64,000 nucleotides of DNA, taken from the NCBI GenBank assembly GCA_026712715.1, contig JAPOPW010000013.1:1-64000 (forward strand), in the 5' to 3' direction. Under the pieces are notes generated by a model. That model did no database searches. It was given only the letters and a program-made list of their open reading frames with translations, and had not been told where the DNA came from. The position numbers were made by a program, and so were the translations under genes. The stretch comes from Immundisolibacterales bacterium (GTDB lineage: Bacteria > Pseudomonadota > Gammaproteobacteria > HK1). Positions 2,227 to 55,165 of this stretch are shown piece by piece (position 1 is the first letter of the stretch; each line of letters starts with the position of its first letter).

Positions 2227-3040
2227 CTACTCTCCTTGCGTCCCTGCATTTCCGAATCTGGTGTCTGATTGGGGTCGTGACCGAGCGGCAGTTCTGGGGT
2301 CGGAAAAAGAATCTCTTGCGCAACGCCGGTCGCGGCTCCGGCTGCGCCGGAACGCAAGCGCGAAACCGTCGACCACTCGAAGCGCTGATCGGCCTCGTCC
2401 CTGCGCCGTTCTCGGGAAAGTTCGAGTGCGGCCGATGACGCGGCGCCCGCAGGCCGGGCGCCGGAGGGAGCAACGAGGCAGGCTCGATCGGCGCGCCGCC
2501 CGGGGCCGGGAGGAGATCCGGCGGCATCGTGCGTGCAGCCGGGGCCGCTTTCGGAAGGTAGCGCCCCCGGCAACTCGTCCCGGAGTACGACTGCATGCCC
2601 GACGCGGGAAGACTTGGTTGGGAAAAGTGAGTCGTATTCGGCTGGCCTGACACCGGCCCCGAACGCACTCGCTCCATGCATCGTCTCGCCTCCATATCGA
2701 CGCCCGATGGCGCTCGTCACCGGGCGCAAACTCCGTCGAAGGTGGTTTTCGACCACCCCGATCGCAGTGATCTATGCATGGTCTGGGTATCGGAGACAAT
2801 AGAAGTCGGATACGAAATTTTGTAGTTCTATCCATGGCTTAGGACACTATCTCGAAACGGAAGATTGACTACACAAAGAAGAGAGAGGACTACAAATCCG
2901 GATCAATTTCCCTGTATAAGGGCGCGCACATGACAATCGAAACCGGGGGTGTTCGCTACCACGATCCGTGCCCGTGACGCGAGGTCAACGCCGGTGCCGG
3001 CGATGTTCCGCCGGAGCCCTCTTCCCTGCGTCGCAGCTCC
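2227..3040. other. Stretch with no convincing gene
   Basis: Six-frame reading gives only arginine- and proline-rich frames typical of antisense noise. The segment about 2790-2950 is visibly richer in A and T than anything else in the window (runs such as ACACAAAGAAGAGAGAGGAC), so it may hold promoters or be imported DNA. No RNA gene was recognised. Confidence 0.5.
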
Positions 3041-3893
3041 TCAGGAGTCGCCGTGGATCAATCCCAGCCCGATGGTTGCGGCTCCGGCAATCTCGAACCA
3101 CAAGATCGGCTCGGACAGGAACAGGCTTCCCAGCACCAGTGCGGTGACCGGGATCAGCAGCGTGACAGCATCACGTTGCTGCCGCCCGCGCGCACGAGAA
3201 TTTCGAAGAAGACAATGTACGCAGCCGAGGTCCCGAACAGCGCCATCGCCCCCAGGGCCACCCAGGTCCCGGCGCCGGGCGCCGCAAGTGTCCACGGGCG
3301 GTCGACAACGGCGACCACCATCGCGATGATGAGCGTCGATGCGAGGAGCTGGCAGGTCGCGGACTTGAGCGGCGCAACGTCGGCAAGGTGTCGGCGTCCC
3401 CGCAGGGCGGCAAATTCGTAGCTGAGCTCGCCGGACAGGCACAAACCGATTCCCAGGAGCCTCGCATCGGCCGAGAGCGCGTCCGCCCGGCTGATGACGA
3501 CCACCCCGACGACGCCCAGCACGACGCCGATTACCCGCTGCGTCGTCAGACTCTGCGTGGAACGATGCCATTGCCAGGACGGTGAACAGCGGCGTCATGG
3601 CGTTCATGATGGACGCCGGTCCGACGCTTATCATAGTCTGCCCGGCGTTCAGAAAGCTGAATGGCAACACGTTGTTCAGCAGCCCCATGACCAGAAAGGG
3701 CGTCCAGGCGGACAGGCCGCGTGGCAGGGAATGGCCCAGGAACCATGCCGGCGCGAGGAGAATTGCCGCAGCGATCCCGACGCGGGCCAGCACCACCGTC
3801 AGTGGGGGTAGCTCGACGACCGCGACGCCAACGCAGAAGAACGCACCACCCCACAGCACCGAGAGCAGAACCAGCAAGCCCCACGCGAATCAT
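3041..3893 (-). pseudogene. EamA/DMT-family transporter gene broken by frameshifts
   Basis: EamA proteins are ten-helix inner-membrane exporters or permeases. The amino part (LVLLSVLWGGAFFCVGVAVV, then NNVLPFSFLNAGQTMISVGP) and the carboxy part (TLLIPVTALVLGSLFLSEPI) are in one frame. The middle (VIGVVLGVVGVVVISRADA through GTSAAYIVFFEILVRAGGSN) is in another. One net +1 shift lies near 3549-3553. A one-base loss lies near 3164-3168, where restoring a G would give MLVTLLIPV. At the 5' end, removing one G from a G-run would join an ATG at 3893 to the main frame; otherwise only a TTG at 3877 is available. The reading frame therefore stays open but encodes a nonsense middle. Real decay is likelier than sequencing error, because nearby genes are intact. 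Confidence 0.85.
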
Positions 3894-4856
3894 CGTCTTT
3901 GGTTCTTGCACGTGAAGCCTCGCTACGGGCTGACGCGGCGCTGACGGCGGCAACGTTGCACGAGAATCTCGGGGAGGTCATTCCGTTTCTTGCTGTGGAA
4001 TTCGAAATGCCGCTGTACGCGCGTTGAACCGCGCGGGGTATTCCGGAGGAGAAATGTCCGAGTCGCGCGGGAAGGCAGACGCCCCGGGCACGAGCGATCG
4101 TTTCGGCCCCGAATGTCGCGAGGGCTTCGGAGGTTCGGTCATCGCGAAGTCGCGGGAGGACGCGGCAGGCGCAATCGGCCCGGCTCGGGCGAGCCGGTCG
4201 CCAACGGACCGAACGCGGGCGCGTTCAATATCCCGCGTGCTCCAGAGTATTCGTGCGCCTTCGTCCCTCGGACGTGGTTGCGTGGTAGAGCATGGTCGAT
4301 TCCCCGGAGAACGAGGCGGACGCCGGCCGGGGCCGGCAGAACCCCAACGCCGGAAGGTGTCTCATGATGCGTGTGCTCGGGACGAAGCGGTATCCCGGAG
4401 TGGTCGCATCGCGGGTCGCGGTTCAGGGAATCCCTTGTCTCAGCGAGCGGATGCGGGGACTGACAGCGGTCCGGTGTCCAGCAGTTTCTCGGCTTGGGCC
4501 GGTGCGCTCGTCAGACCGACGGAGGCGACCGTGTGCTCCATTATTTGCTCATAGAGGGGCTACACTGGCTGCGGGAAAGCGGTCCGTCGAGCCGTGATAG
4601 ACCGGAGGGGTGGAAGTCGTGAACAGCCGCTGTGGGAAGAGACTCGTCGTCCTCGCGCACCGGGTTCGGCTGCCGGGCAGGCCGCCCCACCGCCCGGCGA
4701 AATGAGAGCGGTGAAGTCGAGATGGATGAGGTGAATTCCGTAATTTAGCTCGTCATCAATTCCATAATTGATTTTCCACGTGACTCGTAGAACTCCAGCT
4801 CAGAGAATTGCTCAGAGGACTGGTGAGATACTGCGGACAATTGCGAGGTACCTCCC
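3894..4856. other. Stretch with no convincing gene
   Basis: Nearly 1 kb without a recognisable product. A strong-looking GGAGGAG lies just before an ATG at 4054, and that frame runs to 4554. However, the translation is low in hydrophobic residues, rich in R, G and S, and matches no family I know, so it may be the shell of a decayed gene. About 4720-4800 is locally A+T-rich and probably carries the promoter of the downstream monooxygenase. Confidence 0.45.
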
Positions 4857-6044
4857 ATGAGCTCGTGGCCCCATGTCGGCATCGTCGGCGGCTCCCTCGG
4901 CGGACTCACCGCCGCCCTCGTTCTGCGCGACCTCGGCTGCGAGGTCGATGTCTTCGAGCGTTCGAGCGAGGCGCTCAAGGCGCGGGGGGCCGGCATCGCC
5001 ACGCACCCTTCGACCACCCGCTACTTCGAGGAGTCGAGCGAGCTCGACGCGAGCCTCGTCGAAATCGAGCTGCCGTGGCTCCAGTTCCTCGACGCGGGCG
5101 GGGCGCTCGCCTACCGGGAGCGGATGAACTACCGCTTCTCCTCCTGGACGACGGTGTACCGGGGGCTCATGGGTGCCTTCGGAGACGAGCGCTACCACCT
5201 CGACTCCGAGGTCGTGGACTTCGCGCAGGACGACCACCGGGTCACCGTTCGCTTCGCCGACGGCTCGACCCGCACCGTCGACCTGCTGGTGTGCGCGGAC
5301 GGCATCTCATCCGCGTCCCGCACAAAGCTTCTCCCCGGCGCGCACGAGCGGTACGCGGGGTACGTAGCGTGGCGGGCGATGATCCCGGAGTCGGACCTCG
5401 ATCCCGAGAGCTTCGAGGTGCTCCGCGACGGCCTCACCTACTGCGTGCTCCCGGACGGGCACGTTCTCGTCTACCCGATCCCGGGTCTGGAGGGCGAGCT
5501 CGAGCCGGGTCGCCGGCTCGCGAATCTCGTCTGCTACCACAACTACGCCGACGGCGACGAGATCGACGACCTCATGACCGACCGCAACGGCGAGCGCCAG
5601 GCCCTCTCGCTGCCGCCGGGCGCGGTCCGCGACGAACACGTCGAGCGCTTCCTCGAGTTCGCCGACGAGCACATGCCGCCCCAGATCGCGGAAGTCCTGC
5701 ACAAGTCCTCGGCCCCCTTCGTGCAGGTCATCTACGACATCGAGGTCCCGAACATGGTGTTCGGTCGCATCGCCCTCATGGGGGACGCGGCGTTCGCGGT
5801 GCGCCCGCACGCGGGAGCCGGCACCGCCAAGGCGTGCGAAGACGCGTGGACCCTGCGCGACGCGCTCCGTGACGCGGGCGGCGACCCGGTGGCCGCCCTC
5901 GCCCGGTGGGAACCGAGGCAGCTCGACCTCGGGGGGAACCTCCTCGAACGAACCCGCGAGATGGGGGATCGCTCGCAGTTCCACCACACCTGGATCCCGG
6001 GCGACCCGTCGCTGCGGCTCGGCCTCTACGGCCCGGGGCGGTAG
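4857..6044 (+). CDS. FAD-dependent aromatic-ring monooxygenase
   Basis: A 395-residue class A flavoprotein monooxygenase, a family that uses NAD(P)H and O2 to hydroxylate aromatic or N-heterocyclic substrates. The Rossmann FAD motif is at the amino end (VGIVGGSLGGLTAAL, residues 7-21). The mid-protein DG motif is LVCADGISSASRTKL. The second FAD motif is IALMGDAAFAVRPHAGAGTA. The RPHAGAG form recalls 2,6-dihydroxypyridine 3-monooxygenase and 6-hydroxynicotinate monooxygenase relatives more than salicylate hydroxylases, but the substrate cannot be assigned. The start ATG has an AGG-type ribosome site about 8 bases upstream. It appears to be monocistronic. Confidence 0.88.
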   Translation: MSSWPHVGIVGGSLGGLTAALVLRDLGCEVDVFERSSEALKARGAGIATHPSTTRYFEESSELDASLVEIELPWLQFLDAGGALAYRERMNYRFSSWTTVYRGLMGAFGDERYHLDSEVVDFAQDDHRVTVRFADGSTRTVDLLVCADGISSASRTKLLPGAHERYAGYVAWRAMIPESDLDPESFEVLRDGLTYCVLPDGHVLVYPIPGLEGELEPGRRLANLVCYHNYADGDEIDDLMTDRNGERQALSLPPGAVRDEHVERFLEFADEHMPPQIAEVLHKSSAPFVQVIYDIEVPNMVFGRIALMGDAAFAVRPHAGAGTAKACEDAWTLRDALRDAGGDPVAALARWEPRQLDLGGNLLERTREMGDRSQFHHTWIPGDPSLRLGLYGPGR

Positions 6045-6347
6045 CGCGACGCGCGGCGCGGCGGGTCTCGCCGTGGTCGGGCGACGACGTGCCCCGCGCG
6101 CCGCTCGGTCCGACGCGGCTCCCGGACGGGACACTCGTACCTGCGTTCCCCTGGTCACCTGCGAACGAGGAAACGTGGAAGCGGTCGTCTGACTTCCATT
6201 CGAGGGATCTGCCCTCGTCCGGCACCCTCGCCCGGTTGCGACCGCGGCCCCGAGCTCGACTACCATCGCGTCCTCCCGACGCCGAGCGTGGACGGGTCGT
6301 CGACCCGAGGTGGGTCGTTCTTGTTTACCAACGATTGGAGAGAGCGC
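6045..6347. other. Intergenic stretch without a gene
   Basis: About 300 bases between the monooxygenase and the SDR. No motif was recognised beyond the ribosome site at its right end. Confidence 0.5.
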
Positions 6348-7118
6348 ATGGCGCGGTATGTCGAACGGTTCTCGCTCGCCGGACGGCGGGCGCTGGTCAC
6401 CGGAGCTTCCAAGGGAATCGGCCTCGAAATCTGTGCCGTTCTGGCCGACGCGGGGGCTGACGTCGCCGCCGTCGCGCGCGACCCCGGAGGACTTGCCGAA
6501 GCGCGAGCGGCCGTCGAAGCGGCGGGCCGCGCGTGCGTCACCATCGAGGCCGAGCTCGCCTCCGTGGAGGGGCCGCGCGCCGCGGCGCGCCAGGCCCTTG
6601 CCCACTTCGGGGCGATCGACATCCTCGTCAACAACGCCGCGTACTCCCGGCCGCAGTCCCTGCTGGAGACGCAAACGGAGGACTGGGACCGCACCATGGC
6701 CGTCAATCTCCGGGCGCCGTTCCTGCTCGCGCAGGAATTGGCGCCCGGGATGATCGAGCGCAAGCGCGGCAAGATCATCAATGTCTCGTCACAGACGGGC
6801 ATCGTGGCCATCCCCGACCACTGCGCCTATGCGGCCTCCAAGAACGGCCTGAACGCACTGACCAAGGCGATGACCTGCGAGTGGGCGAAGCACGACATTC
6901 AGTGCAACGCGATCTGCCCGACGGTGATCCTGACCCCCATGGGCGAGCGGGTCTGGGGCCCCCCGGAGAAAGGCGATCCGATGCGGGCGAAGATCCCGGC
7001 CGGACGCTTCGGGCGGCCGGTGGAAGTCGCCGATCTCGTGCTCTACCTGGCGTCGCCCGCCTCCGACATGATCAACGGCGACACGATCATGCTCGACGGT
7101 GGCTATACGGCACTGTAG
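6348..7118 (+). CDS. Short-chain dehydrogenase/reductase (classical SDR)
   Basis: A 256-residue NAD(P)-dependent oxidoreductase. Visible are the cofactor motif TGASKGIG (residues about 20-27), the NNA motif (DILVNNAAYS), the catalytic Ser in INVSSQTG and the Tyr-Lys pair in CAYAASKNGLNALTKAM. The carboxy end is GDTIMLDGGYTAL. The sequence resembles gluconate 5-dehydrogenase or polyol dehydrogenase relatives. The nearby xylitol-type dehydrogenase and sugar ABC transporter make a polyol or keto-sugar substrate plausible, but this is inference. I chose the ATG at 6348 over the in-frame ATG at 6288 because GGAGAG lies about five bases upstream and the product then has the usual SDR length. Confidence 0.88.
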   Translation: MARYVERFSLAGRRALVTGASKGIGLEICAVLADAGADVAAVARDPGGLAEARAAVEAAGRACVTIEAELASVEGPRAAARQALAHFGAIDILVNNAAYSRPQSLLETQTEDWDRTMAVNLRAPFLLAQELAPGMIERKRGKIINVSSQTGIVAIPDHCAYAASKNGLNALTKAMTCEWAKHDIQCNAICPTVILTPMGERVWGPPEKGDPMRAKIPAGRFGRPVEVADLVLYLASPASDMINGDTIMLDGGYTAL

Positions 7119-7159
7119 CCGCCCGTGCCTTCGGGGGAGCACGTGTTCCGAGGTCCCCG

Positions 7160-7264
7160 TTTTGCAACGTGCGCCCTCACCCAGGTTCCGCCATGGCCCA
7201 ACCGGACCAGCTCGCGCATCCGGCGCCGGTACTCCGGCGCGTCCGCCGCGTTCGTCTTTGCCAT
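7160..7264 (-). mobile_element. Possible remnant of an IS3-type transposase OrfA
   Basis: Reading the minus strand from an ATG at 7264 gives MAKTNAADAPEYRRRMRELV followed by RLG. This resembles the amino end of IS3-family OrfA helix-turn-helix proteins (PEYRRRMVELVR-type). The similarity fades after about 24 codons and no OrfB follows. It would be a scrap of an insertion sequence. No terminal inverted repeats or target duplications were found. The rest of 7119-7502 holds nothing recognisable. Confidence 0.35.
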
Positions 7265-7502
7265 CTGAACATCTCGTCGGAACAAGGTCGGGATGTCCAC
7301 GAAAACGGTGGACCAACACCACTTTCCGCGAGATGTCCGAAGGCCCCGTTTCCGGCGGCCCACCTCGTCGCGAGAGGGCGGGAACGGACCGGTATTCCGC
7401 GCGTCCGTTGCGCGCGCCGGATGGGTTTTCGAAAATGGGGTCCATCCCTCCCATAGATCCGATGACGTTGACCCCAGAACCGACCGGGAGGCGAGCCAGT
7501 TG

Positions 7503-9506
7503 ATGGAGGCGAGACACAGGTACCCCGCGACCCCTCCGACAGTCACCTTGGCCGTGCTGGCCGCACTCGTGGCCCTCGTTGCGGCGGCCGCGGTGCGGGC
7601 GGAGTACGCCAACCCGGACGGGGTGGCGGTCATCATCGGCAACCGGAGCTACGCGGGGGACCTGCCAGCCGTCGATTTCGCCCACCGCGACGCGGAGGCG
7701 TTCCGACGCTACGTCCTCGACGTGCTCGGCTTCGACCCCGAGAACGTCATCGACCTCCGCGACACGACGCAGGCCGACATGTGGTCCACGTTCGGGAGCC
7801 GCGAAACGGCGGAACGGAGCGAGCTGTGGTCGTATCTCGCGGACGAGGGTTCGGACGTGGTGGTGTTCTACTCCGGTCACGGGGTGCCGGGCATCGATGA
7901 CCAGCGCGGGTACCTGCTGCCGGTGGACGCGAACCCGAACACCGCGGAGCTGAACGGCTACCCCATCGATGTGCTGTTCGAGAACCTCGCCAACCTCGAG
8001 TCGGCGCGTTCGGTCGCGGTGTACCTCGATGCCTGCTTCTCGGGCGGGAGCGGCGGCGGGATGCTGATCGAAGGCGCGTCACCGGCGTTCGTGGAGGCGT
8101 CGTTGCCGGGCGGGGATGCGGAGCGCCTGACGGTGCTGACGGCGGCCTCGGGCAAGCAGCTCGCGTCGTGGGACCGGAAGGCGAAGCATGGACTCTTCAC
8201 CCTTCACCTGCTGGAGGCGCTGTACGGGAAGGGGGACCAGGACGCGGACGGGCGAGTGACCGCGCGGGAGGCGAAGGCGTACCTCGACCGGCACATGACC
8301 CGCGCCGCGAAGCGGACCTGGAAGCGCAGGCAGAAGGCAAGCCTCATGGGGAACGTGGAAGCGGTGCTCGCGAACGCGGGTGCCGGGGGCGCGTTTCCGT
8401 CACGCCCGGTGCTGGACGATGCAGGAGTCGTTGCCGGCCCGCGAGAGCAGGATGCCGGCCGGGCGGGTTCGGCCAGGGGTGCGGAGGACGCGTCGCGGCC
8501 GGCCGACGCGCCGGAGGCAGTGGAGGCGGCGCTTGGCCTCAACCACGCTCAGCGAGTGCTGGTGCAGCGTGGCTTGGCGTCGCTCGGGTTCGAAGTCGGA
8601 GTAGCGGACGGGGTGTTCGGGCGGCGAACGCGCGTGGGCCTGGCGGCGTACCAGCGGGAGAAGGGGTTGGCGGAAACCGGGTATCTCGAGGCGGAGCTGC
8701 GCGATGCGTTGGTCGCCCTGGGGAAGGCGCCGGCAACGGAGAATCGCGGCCTGCCAGCAAGAACCGAAGCGATGCAAAGGTTCCGGGACTGTGCGGATTG
8801 CCCCGAGATGGTGGCAGTACCGGCGGGAAGTTTCGAAATGGGCTCTGCTCCCGGGGAGAAGGGTCGCGGTGGCGAAGAGGGTCCGGCGCACCGGGTGAGG
8901 ATATCGAACCCGTTCGCAGTGGGCGTTTACGAGGTGACGTTTTCGGAGTGGGAATCGTGTCGTCGGGCTGGCGGGTGCTCACACAATCCCGACGACAGAG
9001 GCTGGGGAAGGGGGAACCGGCCGGTCGTCGGAGTCAGTTGGAGGGACGCGCAGGAATATGTGCGCTGGCTGTCGGGGAAGACGGGGAAGGAGTATCGGTT
9101 GCCGAGCGAGGCGGAATGGGAGTATGCGGCACGGGCGGGGACGGTGACGCGGTACTGGTGGGGCGACGCGCTTGGCCGGGGTCGAGCGAACTGTGAAGAT
9201 TGCGGGAGCCGCTGGGACGACAGGGAGACCGCGCCGGTGGGTTCGTTTTCGGCGAACGGCTTCGGGCTGCATGATGTACATGGGAACGCTCGGGAGTGGG
9301 TGGAGGACTGCTGGCATGGTGGTTACCGGGGGGCGCCGACGGACGGGAAGGAGTGGACGAGCGGCGGAGACTGCGGTAAACGCGTGCTGCGAGGCGGTTC
9401 GTGTTTCAATCCTCCAAGGCACTTGCGTTCCGCGATGCGAGTCTGGAAACCCATCGATCGTCGGGACCCTGATTCCAGCTTTCGCGTTGCCATGACACTG
9501 GATTGA
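7503..9506 (+). CDS. Secreted caspase-like protease fused to EF-hand, peptidoglycan-binding-like and FGE-sulfatase domains
   Basis: A 667-residue multidomain protein. Residues 1-33 are a signal peptide (LAVLAALVALVAAAAVRA). Residues about 38-290 are a caspase-like (peptidase C14) domain with the catalytic His in VVVFYSGHG (His126) and the Cys in VYLDACFSGG (Cys178). An EF-hand-like loop follows (GDQDADGRVTAREAKAYL, about 244-261). Residues about 345-402 resemble a peptidoglycan-binding-1 domain (VQRGLASLGFEVG, DGVFGRRTR). Residues about 428-667 are an FGE/SUMF1-type C-type-lectin fold (VPAGSFEMGS, YRLPSEAEWEYAARAG, GNAREWVEDC, VLRGGS). The carboxy motif is degraded: RGGSC replaces the usual RGGSW and SSFRVA the usual xGFRVA. 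The start is the ATG before the signal peptide, with GGGAGG about 12 bases upstream. Codons are unusually G-ending compared with the neighbours. A proteolytic or signalling role is inferred from the family only. Confidence 0.87.
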   Translation: MEARHRYPATPPTVTLAVLAALVALVAAAAVRAEYANPDGVAVIIGNRSYAGDLPAVDFAHRDAEAFRRYVLDVLGFDPENVIDLRDTTQADMWSTFGSRETAERSELWSYLADEGSDVVVFYSGHGVPGIDDQRGYLLPVDANPNTAELNGYPIDVLFENLANLESARSVAVYLDACFSGGSGGGMLIEGASPAFVEASLPGGDAERLTVLTAASGKQLASWDRKAKHGLFTLHLLEALYGKGDQDADGRVTAREAKAYLDRHMTRAAKRTWKRRQKASLMGNVEAVLANAGAGGAFPSRPVLDDAGVVAGPREQDAGRAGSARGAEDASRPADAPEAVEAALGLNHAQRVLVQRGLASLGFEVGVADGVFGRRTRVGLAAYQREKGLAETGYLEAELRDALVALGKAPATENRGLPARTEAMQRFRDCADCPEMVAVPAGSFEMGSAPGEKGRGGEEGPAHRVRISNPFAVGVYEVTFSEWESCRRAGGCSHNPDDRGWGRGNRPVVGVSWRDAQEYVRWLSGKTGKEYRLPSEAEWEYAARAGTVTRYWWGDALGRGRANCEDCGSRWDDRETAPVGSFSANGFGLHDVHGNAREWVEDCWHGGYRGAPTDGKEWTSGGDCGKRVLRGGSCFNPPRHLRSAMRVWKPIDRRDPDSSFRVAMTLD

Positions 9507-9696
9507 GTCTCGATTCCTCGTTTGGCTCGTTGAACCGGCGGATCGCACCCTGGAGGCGTTCGAGCTCCGCGAAGCGGTGTGGGTGCCGATCGCGGCGGGA
9601 AAGGACGACGATCCGATCGGCATCCGGCCGTTCGACGCGATCACCTTCAGCCTGGGAGAACGCTGGCCGCAACGGAGATCCGTACGGTCGACCTGA
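9505..9696 (+). pseudogene. Carboxy-terminal remnant of a Uma2-family endonuclease (DUF820)
   Basis: In the frame offset by one from the stop of the caspase gene, 63 codons read FLVWLVEPADRTLEAFELRE, then PIAAGKDDDPIGIRPFDAIT and FSLGERWP before a stop. This is the typical end of Uma2 proteins (WLVDP..RTLEVF..., F..I...L..LWP). There is no start codon or catalytic core, so the fragment is a leftover joined directly to the end of the caspase gene. Confidence 0.6.
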
Positions 9697-9768
9697 CCGG
9701 CGGGCCCCGGGGCGGGCTTGCCGCCGACGCGTCCGACGTCGTGCCTGGAACCGTGGCGCGGTCCCGGA

Positions 9769-10812
9769 TCAGGCGCCGCCCGGCATCTCGATCTGCACCT
9801 TGACCGTGCTCGGAGGCGCGCTGCGCGCGTAGTCGAACGCCTCGATGCTGTCCCCGAAGGCGTAGGTGTCGGTGATGAGCGGGGTCACGTCGATCTTGCC
9901 GGACGCGAGCATCGCCACCGCGCGCGGCCAGATGTGCGCGTAGCGGAAGATGTGCTCGACCCGCGCTTCCTTGACCTGCGCCGCGAGCACGTCATAGGCG
10001 ATGGGGGCGCCGGGCATGCCGATGAACACGACCCGGCCCCCGGGGCACACATGGTCGAAGACTTCAGCCGCGGCCCGCTCGTTCCCCGACGCCTCGAAGA
10101 CCACGTCGGCCCCCCACCCGTCGGTCTCGCGGGCGACGACCTCGGCCAGGTTCTCGCGGCGCACATCCACCGGAGTGACGGCGCCGAACCGGGCCGCGAG
10201 GTCGAGCTTCGGCTCCTGCACGTCGCTCACGATCACCCGGCTGCACCCGGCCGCGAGGGCCGCGAGCACGGTCACCATGCCGATCGTGCCGGCCCCGATG
10301 ACGAGCGCGATCTCGCCCGGCTGGATCTGCGCCTTGGTGGTGGCATAGACCCCGGTCGCGAGGGGCTCGACCATGGCTCCCGCACCGTCCGACACGCTGT
10401 CGGGGAGCTTGAACGTGAAGTCGGCGGGGTGGACGACGGTCGGTCTGAGCACGCCGTGGACCGGGGGCGTCGCCCAGAAGCGAACTGCCGGGTCGAGGTT
10501 GTACTTCCCGAGACGGGTCGGCCGGCTGTCGGGATCGGGAATGCCCGGTTCCATGCAGACCCGGTCGCCGACCGCGAGCGACGTGACCGCCGACCCGACC
10601 TCGACCACCATGCCCGACGCTTCGTGGCCGAGGACCATGGGTTCCCTCACGATGAACGGGCCAATCCCGCCATGGACGTAGTAGTGGACGTCGCTCCCGC
10701 AGACCCCGACCCGCTTGAGGGCGATGCGCACGTCGCGCGCCCCCAGCGCTTCCTCGAGCTCGATGGGTCGCAGGGACAGCTCGTCCTTGCGTTCGAGGAC
10801 CAGTGCCTTCAT
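9769..10812 (-). CDS. Zinc-dependent alcohol dehydrogenase, xylitol/sorbitol dehydrogenase type
   Basis: A 347-residue medium-chain dehydrogenase that probably oxidises a sugar alcohol to a ketose with NAD. The catalytic zinc region is [17 protein letters not shown], with the GHE motif in VLGHEASG. The cofactor motif is [11 protein letters not shown]. The stretch [20 protein letters not shown], then [12 protein letters not shown], aligns with the structural-zinc loop of polyol dehydrogenases, but all four zinc cysteines are absent, as in some xylitol/sorbitol dehydrogenases. GAGGG lies about 9 bases before the ATG. The decayed sugar permease just upstream on the same strand suggests it was once in a transporter operon. 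Confidence 0.88.
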
Positions 10813-53988: not shown

Positions 53989-54879
53989 TCAGGGCAGGTC
54001 CCTCGCCACCCGGAATCCGGTGTTGATGTCGTGGAACGCGACCGGGACGCGGACCCGGTTCGCCGGCCGGCTGGCCCGCGGCAGGCTGAGCCAGGATCCG
54101 CCGCGAATCATGCGCCACCTGCAACCGTCGCCGTCCGGTCCCGCGGCCGACCCGTCGGACGGCGTGCCGGCATAGCCCTCGCCGCCGCAGTCGGCCACCC
54201 ACTCGTACAGGTTCCCCACCATGTCGTGGACGCCGAACGCATTCGCCGGGAACGAACCGACCGGGGCGGTGCGCTCGTCGTCCCAGCGGCTGCCGCACTC
54301 GTCGCAGTTCGCGTTGCCGCGGCCGACGTCGTCGCCCCACGGGAAGCGCGTTTCGCTCCCCGCCCGGGCCGTGTATTCCCATTCCGACTCGCTCGGCAGC
54401 CGATAGGCCCGGCCGGTGCGCTGCGAGAGCCATTGCGTGTAGTCCCGGGCGTCTTCGAAGTACACGAGCATGGCCGGCCGGCGGTCCCGGCCGAAGCCGA
54501 TGTCGCCGACTCCCTGGCGGCACACCCCCGCCGCGACGCACGCATCCCATTCGGCAAATGTGGTCTCGTGGCGCGCCATGGCGAACGGCTGCGGGATCGT
54601 GACCGTCCGCACCGGTGCCTCGTCGACGTCGCCGCCTCCCGTGAGATCGCCCATCCGGAACGTTCCGGCGGGCACGACGACGAGCTCCGGGCACTCGTCG
54701 CAGTCGCGGATGATGGTGCCCGGCGCATGCGATGCTTCGCTCGCGTCTCCCGCCGTACCCTGCGTCGATGCGCCGTGCGCCGTCAACTGCGCGCCGATGC
54801 CGGACCCCAGCACAAGGGCCAGGGTTACCGAGCCGACCGTGGACTTCCGCCTCCGGCCGATGATCGTGCACCTGGACAT
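53989..54879 (-). CDS. Secreted FGE-sulfatase (SUMF1)-domain protein
   Basis: A 296-residue protein with a signal peptide (TVGSVTLALVLGSGIGAQLT). The formylglycine-generating-enzyme fold shows ECPELVVVPAGTFRMGDLTG, QPFAMARHETTFAEWDACVA, YRLPSESEWEYTARAGSETR, GVHDMVGNLYEWVADCGGEG and the closing RMIRGGSWLSLPRASRPANR. It closely parallels the FGE part of the caspase fusion at 7503, down to the CxxC pairs DCDECPE and NCDECGSRWDDE. GGAGGAG lies 5 bases before the ATG at 54879. Being periplasmic and without a sulfatase neighbour, it may be a binding or structural module rather than a true FGE. Confidence 0.88.
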   Translation of the reverse strand: MSRCTIIGRRRKSTVGSVTLALVLGSGIGAQLTAHGASTQGTAGDASEASHAPGTIIRDCDECPELVVVPAGTFRMGDLTGGGDVDEAPVRTVTIPQPFAMARHETTFAEWDACVAAGVCRQGVGDIGFGRDRRPAMLVYFEDARDYTQWLSQRTGRAYRLPSESEWEYTARAGSETRFPWGDDVGRGNANCDECGSRWDDERTAPVGSFPANAFGVHDMVGNLYEWVADCGGEGYAGTPSDGSAAGPDGDGCRWRMIRGGSWLSLPRASRPANRVRVPVAFHDINTGFRVARDLP

Positions 54880-55165
54880 GGTCGCTCCTCCATCGCCGCA
54901 GGAACGGCGAAGGTAATCCAAGCCACTGCCCGCAATCAACCGGCGGGCGCGGCAGGCTCCATCGGTCCTTGTGCGCGTGTCCTTCGGATACCGTCGCGAT
55001 CAGGATTTCGGCAGGGGAGGGACAGCGCATCGGGTCCACCCGGCCCCGGTGATGTGGGAACATGCGGGAGGTGGGCGCGAGGGTGCGCGCGCGGGACGCG
55101 GCCGGCCGCCGCGACAATCCGCGGCTTCCTCCACGCCCGGTGACCGTACTGGACGGGGCAAGGCC

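What the first reader, a model, noticed from the sequence alone, without database searches (positions are those of the whole stretch)
7503..9506. Secreted caspase fused to EF-hand, peptidoglycan-binding-like and FGE domains
One protein joins a caspase-type protease core with intact His and Cys, a calcium-binding-like loop, a wall-binding-like domain and a FGE/C-type-lectin fold whose last signature is altered (RGGSC, SSFRVA). Single fusions of caspase and FGE domains are known in bacteria. A signal-peptide version with a wall-binding module suggests an exported protease or death effector whose target is outside or in the envelope. Its role and any partner are unknown.
Basis: partly seen in the sequence, partly recalled or inferred. 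Interest (0 to 1): 0.6.

Follow-up and report, generated by a model that had tools for sequence, protein, structure and literature searches.

The report
Exported caspase with retroelement-type variable domain
This bacterial gene encodes an exported, apparently wall-bound caspase-like protease whose tail is a binding domain of the kind bacteria mutate on purpose with a retroelement, and in a same-genus genome sister genes of it are being rewritten in exactly that way, although the window's own genome seems to have lost (or is missing) the machinery.

Summary
In detail: residues 1-667 (7503-9506) carry a signal peptide, Pfam Peptidase_C14 with H126/C178, a canonical EF-hand loop, PG_binding_1 and a C-terminal FGE-sulfatase domain. 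AlphaFold plus a structure search match the caspase part to MALT1 (Z 19) and the FGE part to PvdO (Z 37), TvpA (Z 31) and FGE (Z 30). The 'altered last signature' is the variable region of a diversity-generating retroelement (DGR) target. A same-genus genome holds a complete cassette (bAvd, reverse transcriptase, template repeat). There it has rewritten three paralogs, two of them caspase-PGBD-FGE proteins: 46/93 template adenines differ, 0/213 other bases. Across 24 FGE copies, identity is 56% outside the variable region, 78% at its fixed codons and 17% at its adenine codons. The window's genome has six such caspases, with FGE, repeat-rich or coiled-coil-like tails, but no detectable reverse transcriptase or template. 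The window copy has also drifted at non-adenine sites, so it is an orphan or old target. Caspase-FGE fusions, caspases on DGR targets and exported DGR targets are each known. The exported, wall-module version in this alphaproteobacterial family is a new variant. Proteolysis, export and ligand are untested.

The parts
7503..9506 (+). Complete coding sequence of the exported caspase / PG-binding / FGE protein (667 aa)
7503..7601 (+). Predicted Sec signal peptide, residues 1-33 (...AALVALVAAAAVRA|EYA)
   Evidence: sequence; hydropathy peak 2.84 at residue 17; the same feature before the caspase module in all 15 paralogs
7611..8318 (+). Caspase (C14) domain, residues 37-272
   Evidence: Pfam PF00656 46.5 bits; MALT1 Z 19.3, rmsd 2.4 over 186 residues
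7878..7880 (+). Catalytic His126 codon
   Evidence: YSGHG motif, 15/15 paralogs
8034..8036 (+). Catalytic Cys178 codon
   Evidence: DACFSG motif, 15/15 paralogs
8235..8270 (+). EF-hand-type calcium loop DQDADGRVTARE, residues 245-256
   Evidence: conserved pattern in 15/15 paralogs; also in related caspases lacking FGE
8544..8711 (+). PG_binding_1 domain, residues 348-403
   Evidence: Pfam PF01471 39.7 bits
8763..9500 (+). FGE / C-type-lectin fold domain, residues 421-666
   Evidence: Pfam PF03781 179.7 bits; PvdO Z 37.1, TvpA Z 30.8
9390..9491 (+). DGR-type variable region RGGSCFNPPRHLRSAMRVWKPIDRRDPDSSFRVA, residues 630-663
   Evidence: same length and register as the template/variable repeats of the G011 DGR

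Best explanation
The gene encodes an exported, envelope-anchored caspase-type protease coupled to a variable recognition domain. A signal peptide sends it out of the cytoplasm, and the PG_binding_1 module holds it at or near the cell wall. The C-terminal FGE/C-type-lectin domain is a binding face, not an enzyme, whose residues were diversified by adenine-specific mutagenic retrohoming from a DGR template in the lineage. Binding of a ligand (a phage, a competitor or a surface polymer) would concentrate or activate the calcium-dependent His/Cys protease next to its substrate. Shown by computation: architecture, intact dyad, paralog family with shuffled tails, a complete DGR in a same-genus genome that rewrites two caspase-PGBD-FGE paralogs, and hypervariability of the window copy at exactly the template-adenine codons. 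Inferred: export, wall attachment, calcium dependence, protease activity, ligand gating. For the window copy, diversification is past or by a machinery missing from this assembly.
For: Domain order and dyad. Fold: caspase part like MALT1; FGE part like PvdO and like TvpA, itself a DGR variable protein (PMC6328139). DGR in same-genus G011 contig C417: bAvd 70 bits, RVT_1 56 bits with IGNLTSQ and YVDD motifs, template directly behind the RT. Three variable regions have all 46 mismatches at template adenines, none at 213 other bases, Fisher 7e-29; two of these genes are caspase-PGBD-FGE paralogs. The window copy against the nearest variable copy: 147/202 identical outside the region, 14/17 at fixed codons, 2/17 at adenine codons. 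Six C14 genes in the genome, all of this family.
Against: No reverse transcriptase, DGR-RT homologue or cognate template was found in the window's genome. The window copy differs from the G011 template at 19/71 non-adenine bases, so it is not a recent product of that template. RGGSW-to-RGGSC and GFRVA-to-SFRVA are departures from conserved positions and could mean relaxed constraint. Variability at these codons could also arise by ordinary selection on a binding face. No assay of protease, export or ligand exists. The G011 assembly has 8% estimated contamination.
Confidence: 0.6

Rival explanations
1. Targeting protease: the FGE/lectin domain is a fixed adhesin that brings a secreted protease to polymers, prey or matrix for feeding or matrix turnover, with no immune or death role; variation in the family tracks substrates.
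For: Secretion, wall module and lectin-like fold fit an exported hydrolase; neighbours of the window copy look like ordinary metabolic and transport genes; subtilase and lytic transglycosylase genes recur near paralogs.
Against: Adenine-targeted hypermutation of paralogs in G011 is costly to keep for a fixed substrate; DGR targets are proposed as variable sensors (PMC10907252).
Confidence: 0.25
2. Envelope-located abortive-infection or kin-recognition effector: ligand binding triggers the caspase to kill the bearer or a neighbour.
For: DGR targets with FGE-type lectin folds are proposed as antigen sensors in death-linked conflict systems (PMC10907252); orthocaspase domains occur on cyanobacterial DGR targets (PMC7517822).
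Against: No NTPase, EACC1/TRADD-N or other adaptor partner was recognised beside the window copy; EACC1-caspase model below its cut-off (73 of 140 bits); the weak PADLOC caspase hit has 21 bits.
Confidence: 0.25
3. Active formylglycine-generating or PvdO-type oxidase domain: the FGE part modifies a substrate that the caspase then processes.
For: FGE family match; best fold match PvdO at 42% identity; a joint proteolysis-plus-formylglycine role was speculated for C14-FGE fusions (PMC3501461).
Against: Only one Cys (C634) lies in residues 625-667, while FGE needs the C336/C341-type pair (mutant entries listed); PvdO model 191 of 500 bits; the active-site face is the hypervariable one.
Confidence: 0.05
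4. Decaying relic: the window copy lost its DGR and is drifting toward loss of function.
For: No RT or template in the genome; changed conserved positions in the variable region; 19/71 non-adenine differences.
Against: Open full-length frame, intact dyad, EF-hand, PGBD and FGE scaffold; six intact paralogs kept.
Confidence: 0.2

Closest known systems
Bacterial caspase-FGE fusions (prokaryotic metacaspases; Asplund-Samuelsson et al. 2012, PMC3501461)
   Same: C14 domain joined to FGE-sulfatase; 33 of 671 bacterial C14 proteins had FGE, 11 had a putative peptidoglycan-binding domain, and some had N-terminal helices likely to be signal peptides.
   Different: Here all of these occur in one protein, the FGE domain is linked to a DGR in the genus, and there are six paralogs with swapped tails. 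The survey read FGE as a sulfatase modifier.
DGR variable proteins with orthocaspase N-termini in cyanobacteria (PMC7517822)
   Same: Orthocaspase-like domain N-terminal to a C-type-lectin variable domain.
   Different: The cyanobacterial ones are mostly predicted cytosolic; this family is predicted exported with a PG-binding module and lies in (inferred) Alphaproteobacteria.
TvpA, Treponema denticola DGR variable protein (PDB 2y3c; PMC6328139)
   Same: FGE-subtype lectin fold with C-terminal variable region; Z 30.8.
   Different: TvpA is a single-domain protein without a protease.
DGR-diversified conflict-system sensors of Thiohalocapsa PB-PSB1 (PMC10907252)
   Same: FGE-type variable domain linked with peptidase effectors; degenerate loci and remote targets occur.
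   Different: There the effector is usually a separate protein joined through STAND or MoxR NTPases and adaptor domains; here protease and variable domain share one exported chain and no NTPase was recognised.

Membership tests
Peptidase C14 (caspase) family | Profile match above the curated cut-off | tested here: met
   46.5 bits against 21.4
Peptidase C14 (caspase) family | His/Cys catalytic dyad in caspase fold | tested here: met
   H126 and C178, kept 15/15, aligned to C13 His and Cys motifs; fold like MALT1 Z 19.3.
Peptidase C14 (caspase) family | Proteolytic activity | not testable with these tools
   needs an enzyme assay
DGR variable protein (target) | C-type-lectin/FGE fold with C-terminal variable region | tested here: met
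   region 630-663 in register with the G011 template
DGR variable protein (target) | Template repeat differing only at adenines, for this gene | tested here: not met
   21/31 adenine and 19/71 other bases differ from the G011 template; no cognate template in the own assembly. Met by three paralogs in G011 (0/213 other bases)
DGR variable protein (target) | DGR reverse transcriptase in the same genome | tested here: not met
   no RVT_1 or DGR-RT hit in G000, 97.9% complete; present with bAvd in same-genus G011
Formylglycine-generating enzyme | Copper-binding active-site Cys pair (C336/C341 in human FGE) | tested here: not met
   only C634 in residues 625-667
PvdO (dihydropyoverdine dehydrogenase) | Equivalog score | tested here: not met
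   191 of 500 bits
EACC1-associated caspase | NF047832 cut-off and EACC1 partner | tested here: not met
   73 of 140 bits; no EACC1-like partner was seen among the neighbours, which were not searched with an EACC1 model
PG_binding_1 proteins | Profile match above the curated cut-off | tested here: met
   39.7 bits against 23; binding of peptidoglycan not tested
Sec-exported proteins | Signal peptide | tested here: inconclusive
   hydrophobic core and A-x-A site by inspection, conserved in paralogs; no trained predictor was available

The most novel reading that the evidence does not exclude
A lineage-specific multigene family of exported, wall-tethered caspases forms a variable extracellular receptor-protease repertoire: constant signal peptide-caspase-EF-hand-PGBD modules, shuffled C-terminal parts, and binding faces rewritten by a DGR acting on several loci, so that recognition at the cell surface is wired directly to a protease in one chain.
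Probability: 0.35. Interest if true: 0.75.

Novelty: new variant of a known kind. Interest (0 to 1): 0.5.

Why it matters
What cellular DGRs are for is an open question, and targets with an obvious output are useful. Here the variable face and a caspase sit on one exported chain, so ligand binding could be tied to a measurable enzymatic readout. It also corrects a standing reading of caspase-FGE fusions as sulfatase-modifying enzymes: in this family the FGE domain lacks the copper cysteine pair, and in the same genus it is the retroelement's target. The family would let one test whether bacterial caspases can act outside the cytoplasm as recognition-gated proteases.

Tried and rejected
FGE catalysis was rejected (one Cys only in the last strands, PvdO equivalog score far below cut-off). 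A DGR inside the window or in its own genome was sought by RT profile, RT protein, template DNA and a degenerate pattern of the window copy itself, and not found. A partner gene next to the window copy was sought: the neighbours are an FAD-monooxygenase-like ORF, an SDR-like ORF, an alcohol-dehydrogenase-like ORF and an ABC sugar-transport-like set (named by eye from the translations, no profile search), none with a homologue beside any paralog. The EF-hand as a distinguishing novelty was rejected, since it also occurs in related caspases without FGE. In one search the rows G011_C239 and G013_C82a are off by one base and were ignored. The one PvdO literature search returned nothing.

Full report
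What is there. The frame 7503-9506 encodes 667 aa. Pfam finds Peptidase_C14, PG_binding_1 and FGE-sulfatase in that order, each above its curated cut-off. The N-terminus has a hydrophobic core and an A-x-A site typical of a Sec signal peptide. His126 (YSGHG) and Cys178 (LDACFSGG) form the expected dyad, and residues 245-256 form a canonical EF-hand loop.

Structure. An AlphaFold model built from the window protein and 31 related-locus proteins has mean pLDDT 76; the FGE part is near 95, the caspase part mostly 70-90, and the linkers are low. Structural alignment puts the caspase part (37-272) on the human paracaspase MALT1 (Z 19.3, 186 residues, 2.4 A). The FGE part (421-666) lies on PvdO (Z 37.1), the Treponema DGR variable protein TvpA (Z 30.8) and formylglycine-generating enzymes (Z about 30). 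A sequence search aligned His126 with the metacaspase-4 SGHG motif, and both dyad residues with the His and Cys motifs of legumain-type chains, at weak E-values.

It is a family, not a single fusion. The window's genome (5.05 Mb, 82 contigs, 97.9% complete) has six C14 genes, and all six are of this family: the other five are 60-67% identical to this one over the N-terminal module. All keep signal peptide, caspase, EF-hand and PG_binding_1, but four end in FGE, one in a long repeat-rich tail without a Pfam match and one in a coiled-coil-like tail. Two other genomes of the same GTDB-type family carry three and six such modules. In the 17-genome order, 3 genomes have the module. In a 369-genome draw from the class, 9 genomes (the window's own and eight others) have a match; the eight others are more distant, and their ORFs show no FGE or PGBD match. 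All 15 family modules keep the dyad motifs and the EF-hand acidic positions. The placement in Alphaproteobacteria is inferred from the kinship of named relatives, not tested by a marker tree.

The variable region. In same-genus genome G011, contig C417 carries a complete DGR on one strand: a bAvd-like protein (70 bits), a reverse transcriptase (RVT_1 56 bits; IGNLTSQ and YVDD motifs), and immediately after it a template repeat reading RGGSWNNKPRNLRSANRNRNETGNRNNNIGFRIA. Three FGE C-termini in that genome match this template with differences at adenines only: 12, 18 and 16 of 31 adenines, and 0 of 71 other positions each (pooled Fisher 7e-29). Two of these three genes are caspase-PGBD-FGE paralogs of the window gene.

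Is the window copy a DGR target? Its scaffold says yes; its current genome says not now. Over 24 FGE copies mean pairwise identity is 56% outside the variable region, 78% at its fixed codons and 17% at the template-adenine codons. The window copy against its nearest relative gives 147/202, 14/17 and 2/17. But it also differs from the G011 template at 19 of 71 non-adenine bases, whereas two other paralogs in its own genome differ at only 9 and 10. No reverse transcriptase, template or cognate pattern was found in its assembly. Degenerate DGR loci and remote targets, most of them still diversified, are described in Thiohalocapsa (PMC10907252). I therefore call the window gene an orphan or old DGR target; a DGR lost in an assembly gap is not excluded.

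Function. The FGE domain is unlikely to be an enzyme: the active-site Cys pair is impossible with one Cys in residues 625-667, and the face that would be the active site is the hypervariable one. FGE-type DGR variable proteins use this face to bind ligands (PMC6328139). Cellular DGR targets are mostly membrane-anchored or exported binders (PMC8144416). The most economical mechanism is an exported, wall-held protease whose variable face selects what is bound and so what is cut or signalled. Whether the outcome is defence, kin recognition, death or feeding is open. The D-x-C motif before the active site is metacaspase-like, so cleavage after Arg or Lys is expected from established knowledge of that group, and calcium dependence is plausible from the EF-hand; neither was tested.

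Neighbours. Nothing beside the window copy recurs beside the paralogs. Beside paralogs in other loci, four protein types recur: a DUF4384-type protein, SLT lytic transglycosylase, OmpA-like protein and subtilase. Downstream of the G011 target are a bacterial alpha-2-macroglobulin and a PBP1C-like protein. These are envelope functions, in keeping with an envelope role, but one by one they are weak evidence.

Relation to the known. Caspase-FGE fusions (33 of 671), PG-binding caspases (11 of 671) and likely signal peptides on bacterial caspases were reported in 2012 (PMC3501461). Orthocaspase domains on DGR variable proteins were reported in cyanobacteria (PMC7517822), and FGE-fold antigen sensors with protease effectors in 2024 (PMC10907252). 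The combination in one exported chain, as a shuffled paralog family in an alphaproteobacterial lineage, with a DGR shown to act on it in the genus, was not found in the papers searched. I rate it a new variant of a known kind.

Noticed in passing
window 53989-54939 (-): A second exported FGE-domain protein (about 317 aa) with a DGR-type end RGGSWLSLPRASRPANRVRVPVAFHDINTGFRVA (54004-54105), 53% identical to the FGE part of the finding.
   Followed up: partly
L131 (G003 contig C77, about 84-98 kb): A tandem array of genes in which a different, more Pfam-typical C14 domain (117 bits in two scanned) is joined to the same PG_binding_1 and FGE domains; the architecture seems to have arisen more than once.
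   Followed up: partly
L074 (Asaia bogorensis MAG) 2711-6056 and L096 (Chromatiales ex Bugula) 3685-9996: DGR-type reverse transcriptases beside FGE homologues with self-matching repeats of 84-90% identity, probably further DGRs on the same FGE subfamily.
   Followed up: partly
L124 8963-16616 (G011 contig C417): A bacterial alpha-2-macroglobulin (protease trap) and a PBP1C-like gene lie directly downstream of the DGR-targeted caspase gene; this pair is common, so the link may be chance.
   Followed up: no
L018 2693-3763 and L128 3254-4348: SLT lytic transglycosylase genes next to family members in two genomes; DUF4384, OmpA and subtilase genes also recur.
   Followed up: partly
L151 6767-8296 and L152 7079-7402 (G005, G006): Short fragments similar to the N-terminal part of the G011 DGR reverse transcriptase, possibly remnants of lost DGRs.
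   Followed up: no
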